From: Vigna angularis
Taxonomy: Eukaryota > Streptophyta > Magnoliopsida > Fabales > Fabaceae
Assembly (NCBI RefSeq): GCF_016808095.1
Contig: NC_068977.1
Coordinates: 28,111,364 to 28,175,363 of the forward strand
DNA length: 64,000 nucleotides
Direction: 5' to 3'
Shown one piece after another: positions 21,120 through 42,289 of this stretch. The notes under the pieces were generated by a model. It did not search any database. It saw only the letters and a list, made by a program, of their open reading frames with translations, and had not been told where the DNA came from. The translations under genes and the position numbers were made by a program. How positions within the stretch are numbered: the first letter of the stretch is position 1; each line of letters begins with the position of its first letter.

Positions 21120-21870
21120 GTGTGGAGACGTCCGTCCTAGAGGGAGCCAGACGTCTATAATATATGGACGTCCGTCCCCCTCCAGGACGGACGTTCAAGA
21201 GGCTGACAGGGTGTGAACCCATCAGCCTCTTGAACGTCCGTCCTGGAGGGGGACGGACGTCCATATATAATAGACGTCTATCCCCCTCCAGGACGGACGT
21301 TCAAGAGACTGAGATGTCAGTCTCTTGAACGTCCGTCCTGGAGGGGGACGGACGTCCATAACCCAGTCAGCCTCTTGAACGTCCGTCCTGGAGGGGGACG
21401 GACGTCCATATATAATAGACGTCCGTCCCCCTCCAGGACGGACGTTCAAGAGACTGAGGGGTTGTACAACCCTGTCAGTCGCGTGAACGTCCGTCCTGGA
21501 GGGGGATGGACGTCCATTATATATGGACGTCCGTCCCCCTCCAGGACGGACGTTCAAGAGGCTGATAGGTTGTACTACCCTGTCAGCCTCTTGAACGTCC
21601 GTCCTGGAGGGGGACGGACGTCCATTATATATGGACGTCCGTCCCCCTCCAGGACGGACGTTCAAGAGACTGACATCTCAGTCTCTTGAACGTCCGTCCT
21701 GGAGGGGGACGGACGTCTATTATATATGGACGTTCGTCCCCCTCCAGGACGGACGTTCAAGAGGCTGACAGGGTAGTACAACCCATCAGCCTCTTGAACG
21801 TCCGTCCTGGAGGGGGCCGGACGTCTACTATATTATAGACGTCCGGCCCCCGCCACAACGGACGTTCAAA
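21120..21870. repeat. Array of perfect and near-perfect palindromes
   Basis: Roughly 35-bp arms around GACGTCC / GGGGGAGG / GGACGGACGTTCAAGAG alternate in orientation at ~100-120-bp spacing. Loops differ, for example GCTGACAGGGTGTGAACCC or GACTGAGATGTCAGTC. Every second junction is ATATATAATAGACGTC or its complement. Confidence 0.92.
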
Positions 21871-22273
21871 AGACGTTTAAAATAAAGATACACACTTCAA
21901 AACGCGAACCCGCGAGGAGTTATGCGAACCTTTCCCTCTGCGCCTTGCATTTCCAGGTTGGTTTTTATGCGTTTTGGGCCATTTAATCTTACTTTTGTTC
22001 CGATTAAATTGTTCAGTGATGACATATCTTTCATTTGGACCGATTAAAAATCGTTTTCGGTGCATTTTGGTGCAGTTTGTTACGTGTTCTTGGGCGGCGT
22101 TTTTTGACCTACATTTTTAGGTCGTTTACTCCTCCATTTTCATTTTGAATCTGTTCTTCAGACGTGTTGCAGTGCACAAACAAACGTTCGAACCCGTAAT
22201 CCTAAATAACCTGAACCCGTAATCCTAAATAACCCTAAATAAGCCGTCTAATAAAGCCCTTTCTGCAGTAGTA

Positions 22274-27838: not shown

Positions 27839-27843
27839 ACTCT
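27839..27843. other. Target-site duplication ACTCT (left)
   Basis: ACTCT precedes the LTR retrotransposon and recurs at 36338-36342 directly after it. Confidence 0.93.
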
Positions 27844-30261
27844 TGTAACATCCCGATTATATAATAACAAATATTACATAATAAAGATGTCATCATTACA
27901 ATATAGAGAACAGTCAGAATATGACGTGTAATTTAATTGTTAAATTACAATCATCCAAATTAAATGAGTGAAAAATTAAACCTTGAACAGCTAACAAGGA
28001 TTGATCACTACAAATGATCAATCAGGAAGCTTCTAAGAAGACTACTCTGCAACATCAGCAACCTCCAGCTCCTGCTCCAAGGGAAACTCTTCGACGCCAT
28101 CTGCTCCCATCCAAGTGGATGATCATCGCCGAATAACATAATCCAAATTGGCACACAACACAAACAATGCAAGGGTGAGCTAGATATAAAAAACATGTTA
28201 TCTCCTAGCACAATTAATTCATGTCATCATAGATTTAAATACAGAAGTATTTATGCATACATATTAAACCATAATCCACATATTCACACGACTCATCCGG
28301 ATTTGTATAATTGTCGAACTATTGGTCGTCTTTGCACTTGCATAGTTCAGCTGGTCTTTCTCCAACACTAGCAAGTTGAATCCCCCAATCTGTCTATGTC
28401 TAAATTCAAAGACTATAGACGAGGACCTCCCTCTACTCTCACCACTCACATTATTCTTCTCTACTTGAGTATGAACAATGCTTTGAGTTTAGGGATAGAC
28501 ATACCATTTCAAAGCTCCTACAATTATACAGAACAACCACAATACTATACATAACCACTTTCATCCATCTCTCCCTGAGATTTCCGAATCATACTCACAT
28601 TCATCATTTACATCATATAATCACATCATCACAGTAATTTATCATATTTCACATTCATTCACATAATTTCACCCATATCACTTCTCAATATATATATATA
28701 TATTTATTCCAAATATTAATATAGATAATTCAACTCGAAAGAAAATAAAAATTTAGACAACAAAATTTGTAGAATACTATTTGGAAGACCACTATTCATT
28801 TAACCCATTCTGGAACGAACGTCACTGGACGAACGTCATTTTCCAAGCTGAACACATTTCTGAACGTACGTCATTTCCGAACGCCAGGATGAACACATTT
28901 TGACCGAACGTCACACAATTGATATGGACGAACGCTACAGGACGAACGCCCAACAACAGGCCGGACTGGACGAACGCTATGGGACGAACGCTCAACAACA
29001 AACCGCACACTTCTCTTGGACGAACGCTACTGGACGAACGCTACGGAGCGAACGCGCAACAACAGGCCGAACACTTCTTACCGACTGCTATATTGGATTT
29101 AAAAATTTCTTAGAACGAACGCTATGATACTTAAGCCGATCGCTCATCATCGAACCCTAAGAATTTCCACCTTAAGACCGAACGCTCACTCAGCTTCAAG
29201 GACGAACGCTACACTCAAACTGAAGGACGAACGCTACACTCAGGACGAACGCGAACACTCGTCAAAACGAAAACCGAACGACAACCATATTTTGGCCGAG
29301 CTACGTGGACGAACGCCTAAATTTGGCTGATTGGGTCGAACGCTAATAACAAAAACCGAACGCACAAATTTAGCTACTTTGGGCGAACGTTCAGAAAATA
29401 CCGAACGTTCAGAAATTTGGATACTTTGGGCGGACGTTCAGAAATTTTGCACGAACGTCCAATTTGAAATTTCAAATTGGACGAACGCTCAAAATTTGGG
29501 ACGAACGGAGTCAAAATTTGACGAACGCTCGGGCTGGTAATCGATTACAGGACCCCTGTAAACGATTACCCGAGAGAAATGGCCAATTTATACAGAAAGT
29601 CCAACGCAGGTACTCAGTCAGGTGAACACAGGTCACCAACTGAACGTTCAGAAAATTTTGGGACTAACGGTTCTGCAGAATTTCTGCAGAATTCCAGAAA
29701 CGTAAAAAAAACCATTTTCATCTCCAAAATTTCCCAGATTTGCACCAAACACAGTATAATTCAACAATCAAAATGCAAAATATCTAGCTCCCCTTACCTC
29801 TTGAAGACCTCCTTGAATTTATCTCAAAAGGGTTTGATCTCCTTCCAACTTCAAGAGTTCTCCACTTCTCCTCTCCCAGAACTTGCAGCGTCAATGCCTC
29901 TTAGCACTTCGGCAGCTCCTACTTCACCTTCTCTCAAATATGGCAGCAACTCCTTCAATTCGCAGAATTCCCCAAAACTCTTTGAATCCATGGTTTTTAC
30001 GTTTAAGAAGGAAGAAATGGTGCTCTTGGACGGCTGGAAACGGGAGAAGGGTTCCCTCCCTCTGCTGCTCTCTCTCTCCTTCTCACATGCCAATAATGAG
30101 AGCCCCATTTCTGCCAAACCTCCCCCGTAAAATGCCCCCTCATAACCTCCCCTCTTCCCCTCCTCTTCTCTTTCCTTTTCTTGTTTTCTTTTCATTTTTT
30201 TGTTTTCAAAGGGAAGCAACGTTTGCTGTCCCTTGTGGCAGCGCTCGTTGCTTCCTCCCTT

Positions 30262-30313
<52 letters not shown>

Positions 30314-30328
30314 ATACAATTCCTTACA
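27844..30328 (-). repeat. 3' LTR of the WOX-carrying retrotransposon
   Basis: On the plus strand it runs TGTAACATCCCGATTATA ... ATTCCTTACA; the element's sense is the complement. It is 2485 bp. It holds a cluster of about 25-30 (G)ACGAACG(C/T) motifs (28810-29540), an inverted TAATCGATTACAGG/CCTGTAAACGATTA pair (29531-29570) and a poly-T run of about 40 near 30264. Frames such as that at 29579-30130 recur identically in the other LTR and show no known domain. Confidence 0.93.
28810..29545. repeat. ACGAACG motif cluster in the LTR
   Basis: Irregularly spaced copies of GACGAACGCT, CCGAACGTTC and variants, absent from most of the AT-rich window. The same block recurs at 34831-35566 and, inverted, at 37322-38057. 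Confidence 0.85.
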
Positions 30329-30339
30329 TTCTCCCCAAC
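30329..30339 (-). other. Polypurine tract of the retrotransposon
   Basis: TTCTCCCCAAC on the plus strand, i.e. GTTGGGGAGAA in the element's sense, sits directly before its 3' LTR. This is where plus-strand DNA synthesis would be primed. Confidence 0.75.
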
Positions 30340-30363
30340 AACAAAAATTTTCGTCCTCGAAAA

Positions 30364-30520
30364 TTAGAACGGAGTCTCGAACAGATGGGGATACAAATCC
30401 TTCATAGCATCTTCCACTTCCCAAGTAGAGTCACCCGTTTTCTCGTACCAGATGACTTTCACAAATCTGATTGCTTTCCTCTTGTAGTACTTGGTGTTGC
30501 TATCTTCAGTTCTAACAGGT
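30364..30520 (-). pseudogene. C-terminal end of integrase (chromodomain tail) of the retrotransposon
   Basis: The minus-strand frame reads M-Q-P-V-R-T-E-D and then R-F-V-K-V-I-W-Y-E-K-T-G-D-S-T-W-E-V-E-D-A-M-K-D-L-Y-P-H-L-F-E, ending at TAA (30364-30366). The V-K-V-x-W...S-T-W-E-x-E-D-x-M...Y-P-x-L-F pattern is the usual end of chromovirus integrases (Tekay-type), thought to help choose chromatin targets. The stop is followed by TTTTCGAGGACGAAAAT, also typical of this lineage. Upstream pol is missing, replaced by the WOX-like locus. Confidence 0.82.
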
Positions 30521-30830
30521 TGCATTCCAGCGTTATTCTCATCACATTATACAAGAGATTGTCGAAGTCTAAGCACATCCTGTCTAATGTGTAGAGTTGC
30601 CTCCCACTACTCACATAATAAACCCATCCTGGTAGTTCCCACCACTCAAAGAGCTTATCAGGGTAACTTCAACCGTTCATACGAGGCGACAATTCTGGAT
30701 CATCATACACATCACATATCTCACACCAAAAATCATGTCATATCTACACTTACTCACATAGTAAGAGATCCTCTCTAATTTGAATATTTCATATTTCCAA
30801 AATGTGACAAAAATCATATACTATATTTTA

Positions 30831-30835
30831 TTTTA

Positions 30836-30867
<32 letters not shown>

Positions 30868-30878
30868 TTTTTTTTTAA
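30831..30878. repeat. (TTA)n / poly-T tract
   Basis: TTA repeats run into a poly-T stretch just upstream of the WOX-like promoter. Confidence 0.9.
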
Positions 30879-30941
30879 CCGATACTATTGAAGATTCCGG
30901 TATGCATGACCGGAACTGTGAGCACAGTGAGGTTCCTTGGC

Positions 30942-30948
30942 TATAAAA
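30942..30948 (+). promoter_or_regulatory. TATA box of the WOX-like gene
   Basis: TATAAAA in GGCTATAAAACGAGG. Transcription would start near 30970-30980, giving a leader with repeated GATCTGAG words (30990-31070). No other TATA box of this quality lies closer to the ATG. Confidence 0.6.
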
Positions 30949-31133
30949 CGAGGTGCTAGCCGCATTGGGCGACACTTCGAAACGTTGAGATCTGAGAGCA
31001 TCTGAGAGAGATCTGAGCACTGAGAGTTCTGAGTGTGAAAACTTTGCGAGATCTGAGCGACTGAGTGTGGTAGATCGGAGAGTCTTCCGGCAAGCTTCAA
31101 ATCCGCAAGTTCTAAGGCTTTGCTCCGCCTCGA

Positions 31134-31761
31134 GTAAGCACTTCTCTTCTCTTATCTCTTCCCTTCCTTTACCTAGCTTCTTCTTCTCCTTTACTTCTTA
31201 CTTCTTCTCTTTCCTTTCTCTTCCTTGCTTCCTTTCACATACTATTTCTTTTCTGAGCTTTTATTACTCGCACTTACATTCTGCTTTCTTCTTTACTTTC
31301 TGCTTGTTATTTTTTTTTTTTTTTTACTTCTGCTTCTGCATTTACTTTCTTTTTCTTCCTCTTCTTCTATATTTTCCTTTTAAAAACTAAGAACCCACTG
31401 CATTAACTAAGATAAGGGGTATATCGGCTGGAAACCAGACGTTAATCTCCCTCCGTTTGGAGGTATGGCAGAGACAATCGGGTAGAACAACGCCACGTAC
31501 CCCATAAAACAGAAAACTTAAAAAGAGAAATTTATTTGTATGAACCGGATATGGACAATATGGACAAAGACAGATGGACATAGATCCGTTTAAGAACCTT
31601 TGCGAGGACCGTGAAAAAGATCCGAGATTATACACTGAAACAACAAGGACCGATTTGGACAAAAAGAACCTAAAAGAAACAAAATAAATAAGGAGAACAT
31701 TGAATATTTTCGTTTTGGTTTTGCTCTTTTTATTTCATTTTATTATTTCCTTATGCTTTAG
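31134..31761 (+). other. Predicted 5'UTR intron of the WOX-like gene
   Basis: A donor GTAAGC at 31134 (CCTCGA|GTAAGCACTT) is followed by a long T/C-rich stretch, and an acceptor ATGCTTTAG ends at 31761, 20 bases before the ATG. The intron would be 628 bp. Long first introns in the leader are common in plant genes. This is a sequence-based guess without transcript support. Confidence 0.5.
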
Positions 31762-31781
31762 AAATACTTTGAGAGAGAAAG

Positions 31782-32322
31782 ATGAGTGATGTGGAGTCCG
31801 AGAGGTACACCAGTCAGCGGTGGCGACCAACCGATGATCAGATCAAAATGATGCTCAATATCTACAACTACGGGGTCACACATCCCAGCAGAGCCCAAGT
31901 CGTCGAGATTGCATCTCGACTCAGGGCTTTCGGAGAAGCAAGTGAATATAATGTACATTGCCGGTTCAACAATCATGGTAACCGGGTCAAGCGCTGGCAA
32001 GCGGAATTAGACCCTACTGGTACTATCTTTTCTCAGCTGCCGCTGTACATGTATGGTAAGAACCTTGATTACTTCTATCTTTGCTTTGAATTTTACTCTT
32101 CCTTCTCCATTATTTGACACAATTTCTTTGTTGGAAGAATATGACTGGGTAATCATGAAGGCGCCGAGGTTGCTGAACTTATTCCCTGTTCCGATCATCA
32201 TTGACGACGACAGAGACGAACGACAGATCCCTCCACCCATGCTTCTCACATTTCGAACCAGAGCGCCCTCGACGGAGCTCTCCCTTAGACCACCACAACC
32301 AGCTCGGGAATTTTTCCATTAA
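31782..32322 (+). CDS. WUSCHEL-related homeobox (WOX)-like protein, two coding exons, inside the retrotransposon
   Basis: Exons 31782-32055 and 32138-32322 are joined over an 82-bp intron (ATG|GTAAGAACC ... TTGGAAG|AATATG, phase 1) and encode 152 residues. Residues 12-73 form a WOX-type homeodomain: R-W-R-P-T-D-D-Q-I aligns with the usual RW.PT.eQI, S-R-L-R-A-F-G with the second helix, and N-V-H-C-R-F-N-N-H-G-N-R with NVFYWFQNHKAR of the DNA-reading helix. Phe, Asn-51 and Arg-53 are kept, but Trp-48 is Arg. Exon 2 has L-L-N-L-F-P-V-P (103-110), close to the WUS box (TLxLFP), and ends with T-E-L-S-L-R (137-142), like the EAR repressor motif of WUS. WOX proteins are nuclear transcription regulators of stem-cell and organ development. 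Unusual features: very short, the Trp change, and location in a retrotransposon, antisense to it. It may be functional, a decoy, or decaying. Confidence 0.8.
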
Positions 32323-32869
32323 AATTATTATTTAATGGTCTGTAATATTAACGATCAGCATTGATCGAACCCCGAACATCTTTTATTTGTTTTTGTTTAT
32401 TTGCCCTATTTGCGTATTTTATGGACTGTAATATTTATCTGCTTTACTTTTTATGTTTGTTCGTTTAACGTGTGTGGTACCATTCGCACACGAATATTAT
32501 GGTATCCGGTTATAACTTATGAAGTTTGAAAAAAATGTGTAGTCTCCATGGCCTTAAAGACCTAAATTAATGAAATATATGGTATTTGTCTTATTTCCGA
32601 AAATAAGATTTACTTTCTTGGAATATAACTCTCATCTTTATTTTCTTAAGCTAACACATCCTTATAATGTTCCAAATACGAAACAAGAGTACGTAAAATT
32701 ATATCCTTCAAGTATCTCCACACATTATACCACTAACCGCGTCAGAGAATATAACCAATAAGACAGCATAATTGAATCTGAGATACCCGAACTCGTATAT
32801 CCCAATTTCTGTTGAATTAATACTTACAAAACACACGGCTCCAAACTAAGTGGGTCGGAAATCACCTAC
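32323..32869. other. 3' flank of the WOX-like gene
   Basis: AT-rich, with TTTATTTGTTTTTGTTTATTTGCC-like sequence that could be a 3'UTR. Between 32560 and 32869 I recognise neither pol nor host coding sequence. The border between captured DNA and retroelement DNA must lie here. Confidence 0.4.
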
Positions 32870-32946
32870 TACTTTCGACCACAGTCAAGAAGAATACGGT
32901 TGATAGTCAACCAATCCATTCCCGGCACGACATCCATGCCTACATG
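32870..32946 (-). pseudogene. Aspartic protease scrap of the retrotransposon
   Basis: The minus-strand frame reads M-D-V-V-P-G-M-D-W-L-T-I-N-R-I-L-L-D-C, matching the common gypsy protease motif (D-V-I-L-G-M-D-W-L....D-C). Two stops follow at once. Only this C-terminal motif survives, and the catalytic D-T/S-G is not present. Confidence 0.75.
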
Positions 32947-33002
32947 CTTTCGAGTTGTTCTATCTGTCTGGCCATTCATCCTTCCATATTACACTTTACG
33001 TT

Positions 33003-33394
33003 TTAGGTGTCCGTTGTTGTTGTCCCTTGTGATATTCCAATTCCGTCACACTCTTCTCTAATACTCGAGTCCTTTTCCACCTCATCAGGGAGACACTTCT
33101 CAGTGAACTTAGCTGGATGATGTTGGCGGAAATACTCCAAACTCAACTTGATCCAGTGATCCCCAGAGGAAATGGGCGATCCGATAATGTCCCTAGTGAT
33201 TCCTATGATCTCCATCAGCTGTCTTTGGGTAGCTTCAAAGTTTGCCTGAGCGACCTCCAACTTTGCAATGTGACCGTGTTCTGATGTGCCAAAACAGCGT
33301 TCTGTTGTTGAAGCGTCTCTATTGCGGATTCTAATAGTCTGGTGCAGTCCGTCACATTACGATCGATAGGTTGAGGAAATGGCCTTGGTACCAT
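33003..33394 (-). pseudogene. Gag remnant of the Tekay-like retrotransposon
   Basis: A minus-strand ATG at 33394 starts M-V-P-R-P-F-P-Q-P and runs through a glutamine-rich coiled stretch (E-T-L-Q-Q-Q-N-A-V-L-A-H-Q-N). After a frameshift near 33270 it continues E-V-A-Q-A-N-F-E-A-T-Q-R-Q-L-M-E-I and S-L-E-Y-F-R-Q-H-H-P-A-K-F-T-E-K-C-L-P-D-E, the motif at the start of Tekay-type capsid ('F.k..PpkF.G...p..Ae'). The capsid core and zinc knuckle are missing. Confidence 0.75.
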
Positions 33395-33847
33395 TTGTTC
33401 TCTCGGGTAGGCAGTGAAAACGATCGTTAGTTAAGTTCAAAGAGTTTATAATACTCAATAAACGAACGTTGAGCACACAGCAAAACAAGAATGGTGTAGT
33501 CACAACCTACAATGTCCTTGAATATGCAGTTCTCTACTACTCTAGGGCACAACACACCATCACAAAACAAGAATCAGACAGGAATTACTACAGGAAACAA
33601 CACTGAAACTCTAACTCTTTCTTACCTCAAACCTTCAAAATTAAGAAAGGAAAATCATCTACGATGAAAGTCATGAGTGTGCACCCTCATTACTCTTATC
33701 CAGACATTTTCTGTTCTTAAAACTTCTAGTCAGATACACCTTACTATATAGACTTGAAAGAAATGGTAAATCATACCATCTACCCTCCAATCCTCACAGA
33801 GAAGACACGGCAAACCCACAACACAAAGGTCATCCTAAGGACGAACT

Positions 33848-33859
33848 GCTCTGATACCA
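33848..33859 (-). other. tRNA-iMet primer-binding site
   Basis: GCTCTGATACCA on the plus strand is TGGTATCAGAGC in the element's sense, complementary to the 3' end of plant initiator tRNA-Met. It lies 4 nt inside the 5' LTR (33864). This fixes the element's orientation as minus. Confidence 0.93.
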
Positions 33860-33863
33860 TTAA

Positions 33864-36282
33864 TGTAACATCCCGATTATATAATAACAAATATTACATA
33901 ATAAAGATGTCATCATTACAATATAGAGAACAGTCAGAATATGACGTGTAATTTAATTGTTAAATTACAATCATCCAAATTAAATGAGTGAAAAATTAAA
34001 CCTTGAACAGCTAACAAGGATTGATCACTACAAATGATCAATCAGGAAGCTTCTAAGAAGACTACTCTGCAACATCAGCAACCTCCAGCTCCTGCTCCAA
34101 GGGAAACTCTTCGACGCCATCTGCTCCCATCCAAGTGGATGATCATCGCCGAATAACATAATCCAAATTGGCACACAACACAAACAATGCAAGGGTGAGC
34201 TAGATATAAAAAAACATGTTATCTCCTAGCACAATTAATTCATGTCATCATAGATTTAAATACAAAAGTATTTATGCATACATATTAAACCATAATCCAC
34301 ATATTCACACGACTCATCCGGATTTGTATAATTGTCGAACTATTGGTCGTCTTTGCACTTGCATAGTTCAGCTGGTCTTTCTCCAACACTAGCAAGTTGA
34401 ATCCCCCAATCTGTCTATGTCTAAATTCAAAGACTATAGACGAGGACCTCCCTCTACTCTCACCACTCACATTATTCTTCTCTACTTGAGTATGAACAAT
34501 GCTTTGAGTTTAGGGATAGACATACCATTTCAAAGCTCCTACAATTATACAGAACAACCACAATACTATACATAACCACTTTCATCCATCTCTCCCTGAG
34601 ATTTCCGAATCATACTCACATTCATCATTTACATCATATAATCACATCATCACAGTAATTTATCATATTTCACATTCATTCACATAATTTCACCCATATC
34701 ACTTCTCAATATATATATATATATTTATTCCAAATATTAATATAGATAATTCAACTCGAAAGAAAATAAAAATTTAGACAACAAAATTTGTAGAATACTA
34801 TTTGGAAGACCACTATTCATTTAACCCATTCTGGAACGAACGTCACTGGACGAACGTCATTTTCCAAGCTGAACACATTTCTGAACGTACGTCATTTCCG
34901 AACGCCAGGATGAACACATTTTGACCGAACGTCACACAATTGATATGGACGAACGCTACAGGACGAACGCCCAACAACAGGCCGGACTGGACGAACGCTA
35001 TGGGACGAACGCTCAACAACAAACCGCACACTTCTCTTGGACGAACGCTACTGGACGAACGCTACGGAGCGAACGCGCAACAACAGGCCGAACACTTCTT
35101 ACCGACTGCTATATTGGATTTAAAAATTTCTTAGAACGAACGCTATGATACTTAAGCCGATCGCTCATCATCGAACCCTAAGAATTTCCACCTTAAGACC
35201 GAACGCTCACTCAGCTTCAAGGACGAACGCTACACTCAAACTGAAGGACGAACGCTACACTCAGGACGAACGCGAACACTCGTCAAAACGAAAACCGAAC
35301 GACAACCATATTTTGGCCGAGCTACGTGGACGAACGCCTAAATTTGGCTGATTGGGTCGAACGCTAATAACAAAAACCGAACGCACAAATTTAGCTACTT
35401 TGGGCGAACGTTCAGAAAATACCGAACGTTCAGAAATTTGGATACTTTGGGCGGACGTTCAGAAATTTTGCACGAACGTCCAATTTGAAATTTCAAATTG
35501 GACGAACGCTCAAAATTTGGGACGAACGGAGTCAAAATTTGACGAACGCTCGGGCTGGTAATCGATTACAGGACCCCTGTAAACGATTACCCGAGAGAAA
35601 TGGCCAATTTATACAGAAAGTCCAACGCAGGTACTCAGTCAGGTGAACACAGGTCACCAACTGAACGTTCAGAAAATTTTGGGACTAACGGTTCTGCAGA
35701 ATTTCTGCAGAATTCCAGAAACGTAAAAAAAACCATTTTCATCTCCAAAATTTCCCAGATTTGCACCAAACACAGTATAATTCAACAATCAAAATGCAAA
35801 ATATCTAGCTCCCCTTACCTCTTGAAGACCTCCTTGAATTTATCTCAAAAGGGTTTGATCTCCTTCCAACTTCAAGAGTTCTCCACTTCTCCTCTCCCAG
35901 AACTTGCAGCGTCAATGCCTCTTAGCACTTCGGCAGCTCCTACTTCACCTTCTCTCAAATATGGCAGCAACTCCTTCAATTCGCAGAATTCCCCAAAACT
36001 CTTTGAATCCATGGTTTTTACGTTTAAGAAGGAAGAAATGGTGCTCTTGGACGGCTGGAAACGGGAGAAGGGTTCCCTCCCTCTGCTGCTCTCTCTCTCC
36101 TTCTCACATGCCAATAATGAGAGCCCCATTTCTGCCAAACCTCCCCCGTAAAATGCCCCCTCATAACCTCCCCTCTTCCCCTCCTCTTCTCTTTCCTTTT
36201 CTTGTTTTCTTTTCATTTTTTTGTTTTCAAAGGGAAGCAACGTTTGCTGTCCCTTGTGGCAGCGCTCGTTGCTTCCTCCCTT

Positions 36283-36325
<43 letters not shown>

Positions 36326-36337
36326 CAATTCCTTACA
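33864..36337 (-). repeat. 5' LTR of the WOX-carrying retrotransposon
   Basis: TGTAACATCCCG ... ATTCCTTACA on the plus strand, 2474 bp. Against the other LTR I noticed one substitution (G at 28244 versus A at 34265), a one-base A-run difference near 34212 and different poly-T lengths; I did not compare every base. It holds the same ACGAACG cluster. Confidence 0.93.
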
Positions 36338-36342
36338 ACTCT
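36338..36342. other. Target-site duplication ACTCT (right)
   Basis: Matches 27839-27843. Confidence 0.93.
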
Positions 36343-36546
36343 CAATGTGTTCTATTCTTTCTCCGTGATATTCTGACCCTTTTAATTTCTTCCATGATAT
36401 CAATACAGACGTGGATAAGGGAATCTATTTTGAAAAACTTACAATAATGATCGATCAATATTGGTGTTATAAAATAGAAAAATTGTTGATTTATTTGGTT
36501 TTGTAAAATATTTTCCCTAAGTTGTATAGCTTGTATACTATATATT

Positions 36547-36560
36547 TGTAAGGAATTGTA

Positions 36561-36602
<42 letters not shown>

Positions 36603-39023
36603 AGGAAGCAACGAGCGCTGCCACAAGGGACAGCAAACGTTGCTTCCCTTTGAAAACAAAAAAATGAAAAGAAAACAAGAAAAGGAAAGAGAAGAGGAGG
36701 GGAAGAAGGGAGGTTATGAGGGGGCATTTTACGGGGGAGGTTTGGCAGAAATGGGGCTCTCATTATTGGCATGTGAGAAGGAGAGAGAGAGCAGCAGAGG
36801 GAGGGAACCCTTCTCCCGTTTCCAGCCGTCCAAGAGCACCATTTCTTCCTTCTTAAACGTAAAAACCATGGATTCAAAGAGTTTTGGGGAATTCTGCGAA
36901 TTGAAGGAGTTGCTGCCATATTTGAGAGAAGGTGAAGTAGGAGCTGCCGAAGTGCTAAGAGGCATTGACGCTGCAAGTTCTGGGAGAGAAGTGGAGAACT
37001 CTTGAAGTTGGAAGGAGATCAAACCCTTTTGAGATAAATTCAAGGAGGTCTTCAAGAGGTAAGGGGAGCTAGATATTTTGCGTTTTGATTGTTGAATTAT
37101 ACTGTGTTTGGTGCAAATCTGGGAAATTTTGGAGATGAAAATGGTTTTTTTTTTACGTTTCTGGAATTCTGCAGAAATTCTGCAGAACCGTTAGTCCCAA
37201 AATTTTCTGAACGTTCAGTTGGTGACCTGTGTTCACCTGACTGAGTACCTGCGTTGGACTTTCTGTACAAATTGGCCATTTCTCTCGGGTAATCGTTTAC
37301 AGGCGTCCTGTAATCGATTACATGCCCGAGCGTTCGTCAAATTTTGACTCCGTTCGTCCCAAATTTCGAGCGTTCGTAAAATTTGAAATTTCAAATTGGA
37401 CGTTCGTGCAAAATTTCTGAACGTCCGCCCAAAGTATCCAAATTTCTGAACGTTCGGTATTTCCTGAACGTTCGCCCAAAGTAGCTAAATTTGTGCGTTC
37501 GGTTTTTGTTATTAGCGTTCGACCCAATCAGCCAAATTTAGGCGTTCGTCCACGTAGCTCGGCCAAAATATGGTTGTCGTTCGGTTTTCGTTTTGACGAG
37601 TGTTCGCGTTCGTCCTTCAGTTTGAGTGTAGCGTTCGTCCTTCAGTTTGAGTGTAGCGTTCGTCCTTGAAGTTGAGTGAGCGTTCGGTCTTAAGGTGGAA
37701 ATTCTTAGGGTTCGATGATGAGCGATCGGCTTAAGTATCATAGCGTTCGTCCTAAGAAATTTTTAAATCCAATATAGCAGTCGGTAAGAAGTGTTCGGCC
37801 TGCTGTTGCGCGTTCGCTCCGTAGCGTTCGTCCAGTAGCGTTCGTCCAAGAGAAGTGTGCGGTTTGTTGTTGAGCGTTCGTTCCATAGCGTTCGTCCAGT
37901 CCGGCCTGTTGTTGGGCGTTCGTCCTGTAGCGTTCGTCCAAATCAATTGTGTGACGTTCGGTCAAAATGTGTTCATCCTGGCGTTCGGAAATGACGTACG
38001 TTCAGAAATGTGTTCAGCTTGGAAAATGACGTTCGTCCAGTGACGTTCGTTCCAGAATGGGTTAAATGAATAGTGGTCTTCCAAATAGTATTCTACAAAT
38101 TTTGTTGTCTAAATTTTTATTTTCTTTCGAGTTGAATTATCTATATTAATATTTGGAATAAATATATATATATATATATTGAGAAGTGATATGGGTGAAA
38201 TTATGTGAATGAATGTGAAATATGATAAATTACTGTGATGATGTGATTATATGATGTAAATGATGAATGTGAGTATGATTCGGAAATCTCAGGGAGAGAT
38301 GGATGAAAGTGGTTATGTATAGTATTGTGGTTGTTCTGTATAATTGTAGGAGCTTTGAAATGGTATGTCTATCCCTAAACTCAAAGCATTGTTCATACTC
38401 AAGTAGAGAAGAATAATGTGAGTGGTGAGAGTAGAGGGAGGTCCTCGTCTATAGTCTTTGAATTTAGACATAGACAGATTGGGGGATTCAACTTGCTAGT
38501 GTTGGAGAAAGACCAGCTGAACTATGCAAGTGCAAAGACGACCAATAGTTCGACAATTATACAAATCCGGATGAGTCGTGTGAATATGTGGATTATGGTT
38601 TAATATGTATGCATAAATACTTCTGTATTTAAATCTATGATGACATGAATTAATTGTGCTAGGAGATAACATGTTTTTTATATCTAGCTCACCCTTGCAT
38701 TGTTTGTGTTGTGTGCCAATTTGGATTATGTTATTCGGCGATGATCATCCACTTGGATGGGAGCAGATGGCGTCGAAGAGTTTCCCTTGGAGCAGGAGCT
38801 GGAGGTTGCTGATGTTGCAGAGTAGTCTTCTTAGAAGCTTCCTGATTGATCATTTGTAGTGATCAATCCTTGTTAGCTGTTCAAGGTTTAATTTTTCACT
38901 CATTTAATTTGGATGATTGTAATTTAACAATTAAATTACACGTCATATTCTGACTGTTCTCTATATTGTAATGATGACATCTTTATTATGTAATATTTGT
39001 TATTATATAATCGGGATGTTACA
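36547..39023 (+). mobile_element. Solo LTR of the same family, opposite orientation
   Basis: TGTAAGGAATTG ... TCGGGATGTTACA, 2477 bp, is the reverse of the two LTRs above. ATATT flanks it on both sides (36542-36546 and 39024-39028), so this is a separate insertion reduced to one LTR by recombination, not a broken part of its neighbour. It differs from the other LTRs at scattered sites, for example in the ACGTTCG cluster at 37322-38057. A poly-A run of about 33 lies at its start. Confidence 0.93.
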
Positions 39024-39028
39024 ATATT

Positions 39029-40006: not shown

Positions 40007-41034
40007 TGTTGGTGAATATATAATGGGCTTTAAGTTTATGTTATTTCTTATTCGAGTTAAAAACACTTTAAACTTGAATTTGATTTTCTTATGTTATTTG
40101 TTACAACCGGGATCGCGACGGGACGACGAATCGAAAACAAACGGGTTTAAGAAAAGATTTTGGGAATCGCCACCATAATTTATTATGAAAAAACTATAGA
40201 AAAACGTAAAAGAAAAGTGTGGTCTAGGAAACTAGATTTTAGGTTCGGGAATCAGTTACGCATAAGGAAGGTATTAACACCTTATCGTGCATGCCCAAAA
40301 GCAGTACCTTTCATTAAATGTATAAAGTTGACGTGGTTTCTCAAAATGTTTAATTTTCCCTAAAAAAATAATATAAAGAAACTATTAAGAAACAAAAAAT
40401 ATTTTTTGTTTTATGAACCCGACAAGGATTGACCTTGCTCCTACGTATATCCATTTGTGATGGACAATGAGGGATCACATAGTTCTTTATCTAGAAAAAT
40501 GTTTGTGAGTTTGTTTGAAAATTATTATGAATTATTTTGGATTTTTGAAAAGTGAACTTGATTAGAATTGACATGGTTTTTTTTATTTGGAAGAAATTAC
40601 TTTATTTTGAAAATGGTGAAAAAAAAAGGAATGAAACCGGCCATAAGCCAACGAGTACTTATAGAAATTATCTTATGACTTATTATTATTTTTTATAGGA
40701 AAATACGTGATAAGAAATACTTATTTTTATTTATTTTGAAGTTTTTTATTTATTATTTATTTTTAAATAAAATAAATAAATATCACGTGATGTAGGAGAT
40801 ATAACTGATAGGTGTAAACTTTACTTGTTTTTGTTGCTTAAATTGTTGTGCTTTTGAGTAAGTTTTAGTGTTAATTCTCATGAAAAGTATATAAATGTTG
40901 ATGTAAATATAGTTTTGATTGTTTAAATGTGTTTTGATGCTTTTGTTTGTTTATTTTGAAGTAGAATAAGGATTGGATACTATCAAAGACTTGGAGCGCG
41001 TCAATTGTGTGTCGGCATCGAGAAGTGGATGTTG

Positions 41035-41130
41035 TTTTCACGCCCGGGCGCGAGAGAAGGGGCGCTGGGCGCGAAATTACCGAGAGTCTCGCGCCCGGGC
41101 GCGATAAAATGGGCGCCGGGCGCGACTTAG
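41035..41130. repeat. GC-rich CGCCCGGGCGCG motif block
   Basis: CACGCCCGGGCGCGAGAG, GGGCGCTGGGCGCGAAAT, CGCGCCCGGGCGCGATAA and GGGCGCCGGGCGCGACTT follow one another in about 95 bp, each self-complementary at its centre. This is by far the most GC-rich point of the window. Confidence 0.85.
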
Positions 41131-41134
41131 AAGG

Positions 41135-41470
41135 ATCCCAGGACGCTCGTCGCACAGGACGCTCGTTGCCCAGGACGCTCGTCACATAGCGAGTGCACGC
41201 TAGGTTCATAGCAAGCGGACGCTCGTCGCCCCCTGCACGCACAAGAAGACGCTCGTCCAGAGAATATCAAGTGGACGCTCGATTTGCTAGTGGACGCTCG
41301 TCCAGACGTCTGACGCTCGCCTAACGAGTGGACGCTCGTCCAGAAAGTGGACGCTCGTCCAGAGCTCAGAGGACGCTCGCTCATTAGGACGCCCGTGACT
41401 CAACAATTTGGACGCTCGCCCAGCGACGCACGCTCGCCCAGCGAACGTACGTTCGTCGCCCAGCGAGAAA
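41135..41470. repeat. GGACGCTCG motif cluster
   Basis: About twelve exact GACGCTCG copies plus variants (GGACGCCCG, GCACGCTCG, GTACGTTCG) at irregular spacing, usually followed by TCC or CCC. Confidence 0.88.
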
Positions 41471-42289
41471 TAACTTACAGCCCTTCTCTTTAAAAAACGC
41501 GATCTAGAGGCAGAAATGAGTTCTGGAGGGGAGGAGACCAGTGGACGCTGCAGAGCTCGTGTCTAGGTGCTTCCATGGTGGAAAACCACCAATTTCCACC
41601 GTCCAATCTATGCTTTATCGCTTCTATGATGTATATGTGTAGCTAGAACTCCATTTCACTGGGGTTGAGAGTACATTTCTGAAACTCTTTGTAATTTCTA
41701 TATTAATGCATGATCTTGTATAAATTTTGTGTTCTATCTTTATTACTCATGCCTACGATGAGAATCTGAGCTATTTGAACGGTTAAATCATTGAGAAATG
41801 TATGAGACCGCGGACCTAGGATAGAGCTGCTAAAGGATTTCGAGTCCTAGACATAGGAGGAAATTCTTAGTCATCTGTGACATTGTGTTTAAGGCAAATC
41901 TGATAACTGAATTATCTAAGAGATTAGAATTTAGTTTGAATGATTCTGAACTGTCATATGAGAGATCAGGACTGCATGCGCCTAGGATGTTGATGCTAAA
42001 TTTTGAGGAATTGTGTTAGTAAAAAAAATTACTTGAGTGATGAACTTGAAAATCAACCCCAGCGAACTTTAATTCATCTGTTTTCACCACTTTATTTTAT
42101 ATCTGTATGCTAATCTTAAGTTTGCTACAAAATTACGTTTAATATTCGCTAAATTAGTAAACTTTAATCAATCTGTGAATCAAAACAAATCTCTTGGGAA
42201 ACGATTTCCGGACTTACCGGTTTATTACTTGAACGATCTGGTGCACTTGCCGAGGTCTCAACAATAACCAATACCAAAAGAAACGAGAC

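What the first reader, a model, noticed from the sequence alone, without database searches (positions are those of the whole stretch)
30831..32869. A WUSCHEL-type homeobox gene carried inside an LTR retrotransposon, antisense to it
The two LTRs, matching ACTCT duplications, primer site and purine tract prove that 27844-36337 is one inserted unit. Between a protease scrap and the integrase tail, where RT/RNase H/integrase should be, lies a plus-strand gene with TATA box, predicted leader intron, two coding exons, homeodomain, WUS-box-like LLNLFP and ELSL tail. Because it runs opposite to the element's RNA, its introns would not be spliced out during retrotransposition, which explains their survival. 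Antisense extra genes before the 3' LTR are known in some plant gypsy lineages (e.g. Grande-type); I do not know of one encoding a WOX protein. A mobile developmental regulator, or a source of antisense/siRNA against host WOX genes, would be a new kind of cargo.
Basis: partly seen in the sequence, partly recalled or inferred. Interest (0 to 1): 0.9.

Follow-up and report, generated by a model that had tools for sequence, protein, structure and literature searches.

The report
Jumping homeobox gene in bean retrotransposon
A copy-and-paste DNA element in an Asian bean genome carries, in reverse orientation, a small gene descended from the plant stem-cell regulator family of WUSCHEL, and relatives of that gene are repeated many times in the adzuki bean and conserved as protein, which suggests a developmental control gene turned into mobile cargo.

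Summary
27844-36337 is one young LTR retrotransposon on the minus strand (LTRs: 1 mismatch in 2474 aligned bases; TSD ACTCT; tRNA-Met-type PBS). Where RT/RNase H/integrase should be lies a plus-strand gene (CDS 31782-32055 + 32138-32323, 152 aa) with a WUS-type homeodomain (WUS structure, E=3.5e-9), a WUS-box-like LLNLFP and an EAR-like ELSL tail. It is not a one-off: 59 protein clusters (258 members by hand sum), all named Vigna angularis, match it, 32 of them over at least 95% of its length; a second subfamily reaches mungbean and rice bean. Promoter, leader and intron sequence recur in single gene models of other copies. WUS base-reading residues R38, N90 and R94 are fixed in the 26 A and 9 B proteins compared; out-of-frame gene models show a 2.5-fold third-position excess that 4 x 300 neutral simulations never reached: purifying selection. 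The window copy carries W61R in the homeodomain core and is probably a dead protein. Best reading: an antisense accessory gene of homeobox type, a new variant of the antisense ORFs of Grande, Retand and PvRetro13; eight library searches aimed at it listed no report. Transcription, function and LTR context of other copies were not shown: the genome search did not complete.

The parts
27839..27843 (.). target-site duplication ACTCT, left copy
27844..30328 (-). left LTR (3' LTR of the element); carries many GACGAACG-type repeats
   Evidence: 1 mismatch in 2474 aligned bases to the right LTR; 28 GAACG forward, 4 reverse
30329..30342 (-). polypurine tract (minus strand GTTGTTGGGGAGAA)
   Evidence: sequence read directly
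30364..30546 (-). putative integrase C-terminus / chromodomain remnant (AIRFVKVIWYEKTGDSTWEVEDAMKDLYPHLF)
   Evidence: open frame; similarity recalled; no Pfam hit
30942..30948 (+). TATAAAA of the cassette promoter
   Evidence: sequence; surrounding 30900-30950 matches read-through model P0060 at E=6e-4 in a 3.5-kb search with filters off
31134..31761 (+). predicted leader intron (GT..AG)
   Evidence: sequence; 31358-31462 matches P0039 (E=1e-6, with one gap); splicing not observed
31782..32055 (+). coding exon 1, start codon and homeodomain
31815..31994 (+). homeodomain, residues 12-71; W61R in this copy
32056..32137 (+). coding intron; read through at the same place in some models of both subfamilies
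   Evidence: P0037 matches 31782-32141 without a gap; P0065-P0067
32138..32323 (+). coding exon 2 with stop codon
32167..32193 (+). WUS-box-like motif RLLNLFPVP
   Evidence: L104, L106, F107, P108 conserved in both subfamilies
32272..32289 (+). EAR-like TELSLR
   Evidence: L139 and L141 conserved in both subfamilies
32869..32988 (-). frame with the protease remnant (GMDVVPGMDWLTINRILLDCGRK)
   Evidence: Pfam RVP_2, E=2.8e-4 for the 26-residue piece; frame
33003..33430 (-). gag-like remnant, two overlapping frames
   Evidence: open frames; no Pfam hit; similarity recalled
33848..33859 (-). primer-binding site TGGTATCAGAGC (initiator tRNA-Met type, recalled)
33864..36337 (-). right LTR (5' LTR of the element)
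36338..36342 (.). target-site duplication ACTCT, right copy

Best explanation
This is a young, non-autonomous Ty3/gypsy element (probably of the Tekay/Del chromovirus type) in which most of pol is replaced by a self-contained antisense gene for a short WUS-clade-derived homeodomain protein. The gene has its own TATA box, a predicted leader intron and one coding intron; being antisense, the introns are not spliced from the element's RNA and survive retrotransposition (inferred from anatomy). Gag/Pol must come from an autonomous relative (inferred). The protein family keeps WOX base-reading residues and two repression-type motifs, so it most likely acts as a nuclear TOPLESS-recruiting repressor, used by the element family as an accessory regulator of its own or host transcription in meristem or germ-line tissue (inferred; direction of effect unknown). 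Selection on the protein in the family's history is shown; transcription and activity are not. The window copy itself is probably inactive (W61R).
For: One inserted unit with near-identical LTRs. WUS/STF homeodomain by sequence and by fold of relative P0002: all six Foldseek hits at E<=0.001 are 6wig or 6ryd chains, five with rmsd 0.7-2.1 over 57-66 columns, one (6wig_A) with 7.0 over 80. Family: 59 clusters, 73 proteins (70 V. angularis, one each V. radiata, V. umbellata, V. mungo). LR48 locus tags of 49 representatives of both subfamilies name 10 chromosomes and 14 scaffolds (tags copied by hand, counted). Promoter homology in P0060, leader homology in P0039, intron homology in P0037. R13, N64, R68 (WUS R38, N90, R94) are 100% conserved in 26 A and 9 B proteins; 11 of 12 preset functional columns are at least 90% conserved against 40 of the other 132, Fisher p=4e-5. 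Primary codon position 3:1 changes 42.3:17, neutral means 1.00-1.09, 0 of 300 runs as high in each of four settings. The base contacts of WUS and STF are from passages of PMC7203112 and PMC8329861.
Against: Only this one copy was seen in DNA, so that the other copies sit in LTR elements is unproven. No transcript evidence. WUS-type sites are not convincingly enriched in the LTR or internal region, so self-regulation has no support. Selection could have acted on host source genes rather than on element-borne copies. Of the four out-of-frame pieces P0045 shows no excess (5:6) and P0059 carries most of the signal. The window copy lacks the core tryptophan, and P0052 lacks R38, W87 and R94 equivalents. 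WUS backbone contacts K82, Y86 and K92 are replaced in all 36 relatives compared, so DNA affinity is uncertain. The chromovirus assignment rests on recall.
Confidence: 0.55

Rival explanations
1. Passenger: a host WOX-like gene was captured once with its promoter and introns and has been copied as inert cargo; conservation reflects recency and selection before capture.
For: The window copy carries the core change W61R in a recent insertion; several annotated relatives are truncated or fused.
Against: Codon-position bias between P0059, P0047, P0042 and the window (P0045 does not show it), and conservation of both repression-type motifs between subfamilies that are 46-49% identical, argue against long drift.
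Confidence: 0.22
2. Lineage-specific expansion of host WOX genes: most members are ordinary dispersed genes and this copy merely lies in an element.
For: Annotators call some members WUSCHEL-related homeobox 2, 4, 7-like, 8-like; PMC10357499 (passages) reports significant WOX expansion in V. reflexo-pilosa.
Against: Number of clusters and spread over 10 chromosomes plus scaffolds fit a mobile element; counted WOX families elsewhere are smaller: 14 in alfalfa (PMC10557229, start of abstract), 21, 20 and 38 in cottons (PMC5501002, start of abstract).
Confidence: 0.15
3. The antisense transcript, not the protein, is the working product: it forms double-stranded RNA with the element RNA and tunes silencing.
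For: This role has been proposed for antisense transcripts of LTR elements (PMC7264820, parts 1-2 of 3 read).
Against: Purifying selection on the protein frame is not predicted by an RNA-only role.
Confidence: 0.08

Closest known systems
Antisense accessory ORFs of plant Ty3/gypsy elements (Grande gene23, RIRE2, Retand ORF4, PvRetro13 ORF2)
   Same: Antisense to gag-pol, multi-copy, conserved; in Grande transcribed from its own promoter; nuclear or putative DNA-binding products (PMC7264820, parts 1-2 of 3 read; PMC11963269 passages; PMC4093653 passages)
   Different: Here the gene has predicted introns, lies in the pol position rather than between pol and the 3' LTR, and encodes a recognisable WUS-clade homeodomain; [quoted passage not shown]
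WUS-clade WOX transcription factors (WUSCHEL, STENOFOLIA)
   Same: Homeodomain with R38/N90/R94 equivalents, then WUS-box-like and EAR-like motifs in the same order
   Different: 34-43% homeodomain identity to WUS or STF for seven of nine sequences compared (P0052 30-31%, P0074 42-44%), against 72% between WUS and STF; only about 144-152 aa; fixed NHGN in place of NHKA in the 26 A and 9 B proteins
Orchid Ty3/gypsy elements with a 2-ODD m6A demethylase ORF
   Same: A host-type domain acquired and fixed in a Ty3/gypsy lineage (PMC9289625, passages)
   Different: Different domain, 25-kb elements; the same screen reports a B3 DNA-binding domain in other elements, and a search for words beginning with homeo found none in its main text

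Membership tests
WUS-clade WOX proteins | WOX-type homeodomain | tested here: met
   6ry3 E=3.5e-9, 6wig E=9.9e-9; fold of relative P0002; window copy below the Pfam cut-off
WUS-clade WOX proteins | WUS box (T-L-x-L-F-P, consensus recalled) | tested here: inconclusive
   L-x-L-F-P conserved at 96-100% in 26 A and 100% in 9 B members; the leading T is absent from the family consensus
WUS-clade WOX proteins | C-terminal EAR-like motif (LxL type) | tested here: met
   L139 and L141 at 96% and 92% in A, 100% in B
WUS-clade WOX proteins | placement within the WOX tree | tested here: inconclusive
   homeodomain tree with only WUS and STF as references; no full WOX set was retrieved
Antisense accessory ORF of plant LTR elements | antisense to gag-pol | tested here: met
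   PBS, PPT and protease frame on minus, CDS on plus
Antisense accessory ORF of plant LTR elements | lies between pol and the 3' LTR | tested here: not met
   protease scrap on one side and a putative chromodomain end on the other; the latter rests on recall
Antisense accessory ORF of plant LTR elements | present in most copies of the element family | not testable with these tools
   The genome search did not complete (15 tries)
Tekay/Del chromovirus | RT/RH/INT phylogeny | not testable with these tools
   no RT, RH or integrase match in nine minus-strand frames of 60 aa or more
Tekay/Del chromovirus | chromodomain upstream of the PPT (PMC3605345, passages) | tested here: inconclusive
   position fits; no Pfam hit
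Retand | antisense ORF with TRP28 domain | tested here: not met
   Pfam at E<=1 gives the homeodomain and one weak unrelated row for the product, no TRP28

The most novel reading that the evidence does not exclude
An LTR-retrotransposon lineage of Asian Vigna has made a stem-cell homeobox regulator its own: an antisense, intron-bearing accessory gene under element-level selection that binds DNA with an altered recognition helix (NHGNR) and recruits TOPLESS to steer element or host transcription in meristem or germ-line cells, and whose copies have been counted as host WOX family expansion.
Probability: 0.35. Interest if true: 0.92.

Novelty: new variant of a known kind. Interest (0 to 1): 0.78.

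Why it matters
The origin and function of antisense accessory genes of plant LTR elements are largely unknown (PMC7264820). One whose product is plainly derived from a structurally solved developmental repressor makes the question of what these genes do directly testable: DNA target, TOPLESS binding, tissue of expression. It also warns that reported WOX family expansions in Vigna genomes may be transposon cargo, and it could show how a master regulator becomes mobile.

Tried and rejected
Self-regulation through WUS sites: TGAATGAA, TGA-N5-TCA (run under the script label 'TGA N4-6 TCA' but testing spacing 5 only), TGA-N4-TCA, TTAATSS, CACGTG and TGAA were counted in the LTR, internal and upstream sequence against 300 dinucleotide shuffles each; none is convincingly enriched (TGA-N4-TCA in the LTR: 3 against a mean of 0.99, 18 of 300 shuffles as high; one of 18 tests). 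Cassette brought in by a DNA transposon: no inverted repeats and five short two-copy direct repeat families in the internal region. A second cassette in the window: none at E<=1e-5. Placing the gene among host WOX genes: the profile search at E<=10 returned no ordinary WOX protein, probably because of the 5-residue-word filter. A weak Pfam Nodulin match (E=0.008, 16.1 bits, cut-off 25) on minus 30814-31197 was taken as chance. P0046 has a tail of repeats like those at 41.1-41.5 kb of the window; judged by eye and not used. Rows dropped: the conservation test used 26 of 59 proteins as subfamily A (those with both motifs and 140-205 aa), 9 B proteins (P0070 left out) and P0052; columns present in fewer than 70% of rows were left out. 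The four out-of-frame pieces were picked by eye from the models; only the first 14 residues of P0045's piece were used because of an indel.

Full report
What is there. The window holds an LTR element at 27844-36337 with ACTCT duplications on both sides. The two LTRs (27844-30328, 33864-36337) differ at one of 2474 aligned bases, with 22 gap columns, many in a poly-T tract (the aligned pieces over-ran the ends by 10 and 1 bases). With a rate of 5e-9 to 1.3e-8 per site per year (recalled), the insertion is some 15,000 to 40,000 years old. The primer-binding site at 33848-33859 and the purine tract at 30329-30342 set the element on the minus strand. In element order it reads 5' LTR, PBS, gag-like remnant, protease remnant (RVP_2, E=2.8e-4), cassette in reverse, putative chromodomain end, PPT, 3' LTR. 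None of nine minus-strand frames of 60 aa or more matches an RT, RNase H or integrase family. The chromodomain and gag calls rest on recalled similarity; Pfam found nothing.

The cassette gene. A TATAAAA at 30942-30948 stands 840 bases upstream of the start codon; a leader intron 31134-31761 is predicted. Exons 31782-32055 and 32138-32323 give 152 residues. The homeodomain matches WUSCHEL (6ry3, E=3.5e-9) and STENOFOLIA (6wig, E=9.9e-9). A LLNLFPVP motif and a TELSLR tail follow, in the order of WUS (homeodomain, WUS box, EAR; PMC7203112 passages). The copy scores 18.0 bits in Pfam, below the 22.9 cut-off. Its core tryptophan W61 (WUS W87 by my count along the alignment) is arginine; that change is in none of the 26 relatives compared, and M4V, T25L and R70K are likewise in none. 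I take the window copy to be inactive as a DNA binder (inference).

The family. One search found 59 clusters (E<=0.01, of 66 candidates), all with Vigna angularis names; 32 cover at least 95% of the query, some with internal gaps. Their member counts add to 258 by my hand sum, over at least three annotation sets, so loci are fewer. A profile search gave 73 proteins: 70 V. angularis and one each from V. radiata (P0068), V. umbellata (P0072, homeodomain part) and V. mungo (P0073, partial). A second subfamily, B (P0061-P0070, 128-174 aa, four of ten with 144), is 46-49% identical to P0002 of subfamily A and keeps the ordinary WFQN recognition helix. A third search at E<=10 gave 74 proteins, including two from an unnamed source (P0074, P0075) with a WOX-like homeodomain and a TLSLFP box. 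No hit is identical to the window protein (best 90% over 99%, excluding partial matches), so the window may be adzuki or a close Asian Vigna. Of ten relatives scanned, eight pass the Pfam homeodomain cut-off, P0071 misses it by 0.1 bit and P0052 has no match. The AlphaFold model of P0002 is fair only in the homeodomain (block means 77-86 over residues 11-60; overall pLDDT 58.3); its six PDB matches at E<=0.001 are STF and WUS homeodomains.

The cassette moves as a unit. Some gene models read through non-coding sequence. P0060 matches the TATA region (30900-30950, E=6e-4) and P0039 the leader intron region (31358-31462, E=1e-6), both in a 3.5-kb search with filters off. P0037 matches exon 1 and the whole coding intron without a gap (31782-32141, 82.5% identity), and B members P0065-P0067 have inserted residues at the same place. 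So promoter, leader and intron are shared with at least single other copies, as expected for DNA copied from unspliced antisense sequence.

Selection. Residues that read bases in WUS (R38, N90, R94; PMC7203112 passages; STF equivalents in PMC8329861 passages) are fixed in 26 A and 9 B proteins; Q89 is N in A and Q in B; P0052 departs at R38, W87 and R94. Of 12 preset functional columns 11 are conserved at 90% or more, against 40 of the other 132 (p=4e-5). Against this, WUS contacts to the DNA backbone (K82, Y86, K92) are replaced by Y, C and G in all 36 relatives compared. Four gene models, picked by eye, translate part of the gene in a wrong frame and so reveal silent changes. Inferred changes fall 42.3 on primary third positions and 17 on first positions, a ratio of 2.5. 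Neutral simulations gave means of 1.00-1.09 and never reached the observed ratio in 300 runs for each of four mutation models. P0059 carries most of the signal (27.3:8); P0047 is 7:2, P0042 3:1, and P0045 goes the other way (5:6). This shows purifying selection somewhere in the family's history, not necessarily on element-borne copies.

How it may work. Grande's antisense gene is transcribed from its own promoter and makes a nuclear protein; regulation of retrotransposition by such products has been proposed but not shown (PMC7264820, parts 1 and 2 of 3 read). By analogy, and from WUS-box-like and EAR-like motifs whose counterparts recruit TOPLESS in WUS and STF (PMC8329861 passages), I propose a short repressor serving the element family. 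I looked for WUS-type sites in the LTR and found no convincing enrichment, so its targets are open. The element lacks RT and must move in trans (inference).

Against the known. Antisense ORFs of Grande, RIRE2, Retand and PvRetro13 lie between pol and the 3' LTR and encode TRP28, SMC or unknown domains. A domain screen of LTR elements reports 2-ODD, B3, KOW and Argonaute-linker domains, and words beginning with homeo do not occur in its main text (passages of PMC9289625). Eight library searches aimed at this (a ninth, sought WUS structures) listed no paper on a WOX gene in an LTR element. I saw listings with the start of each abstract, and only 20 of 170, 20 of 110, 12 of 31 and 12 of 48 matching papers were listed; subscription journals are mostly not held. 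PMC10357499 (passages) reports WUSCHEL-related homeobox genes among the significantly expanded families of V. reflexo-pilosa, which may be this cargo; that is inference.

Limits. The genome search was tried 15 times and never answered, so copy number, LTR context of other copies and DNA-level dN/dS remain open. No transcript data were at hand.

Noticed in passing
36547-39023: Solo LTR of the same family in opposite orientation, flanked by ATATT duplications (36542-36546, 39024-39028), about 200 bases from the element; 16-17 mismatches in about 2465 aligned bases to the element's LTRs.
   Followed up: partly
28800-29560 and 34820-35580: LTRs hold dense GACGAACG-type repeats, GAACG 28 times forward and 4 reverse in one LTR; purpose unknown.
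   Followed up: partly
P0074, P0075 (unnamed source; sequences): WOX-like proteins with a YCWFRNR helix and TLSLFP boxes (two LFP boxes in P0075); possibly another divergent or mobile WOX lineage.
   Followed up: no
P0016, P0057, P0058, P0060: Gene models of other copies contain repeated peptides (GLAGQHGNWALQA type, most clearly in P0057 and P0058) upstream of the homeobox or promoter region, suggesting a minisatellite not seen in the window copy.
   Followed up: no
21128-21874: Nested direct and inverted repeats of a roughly 108-base unit containing GGACGTCCGTCC palindromes.
   Followed up: no
40980-41480: Cluster of GGACGCTCGTCC-type repeats, probably part of another repeat element; similar repeats seem to be translated in the tail of P0046 (by eye).
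   Followed up: no
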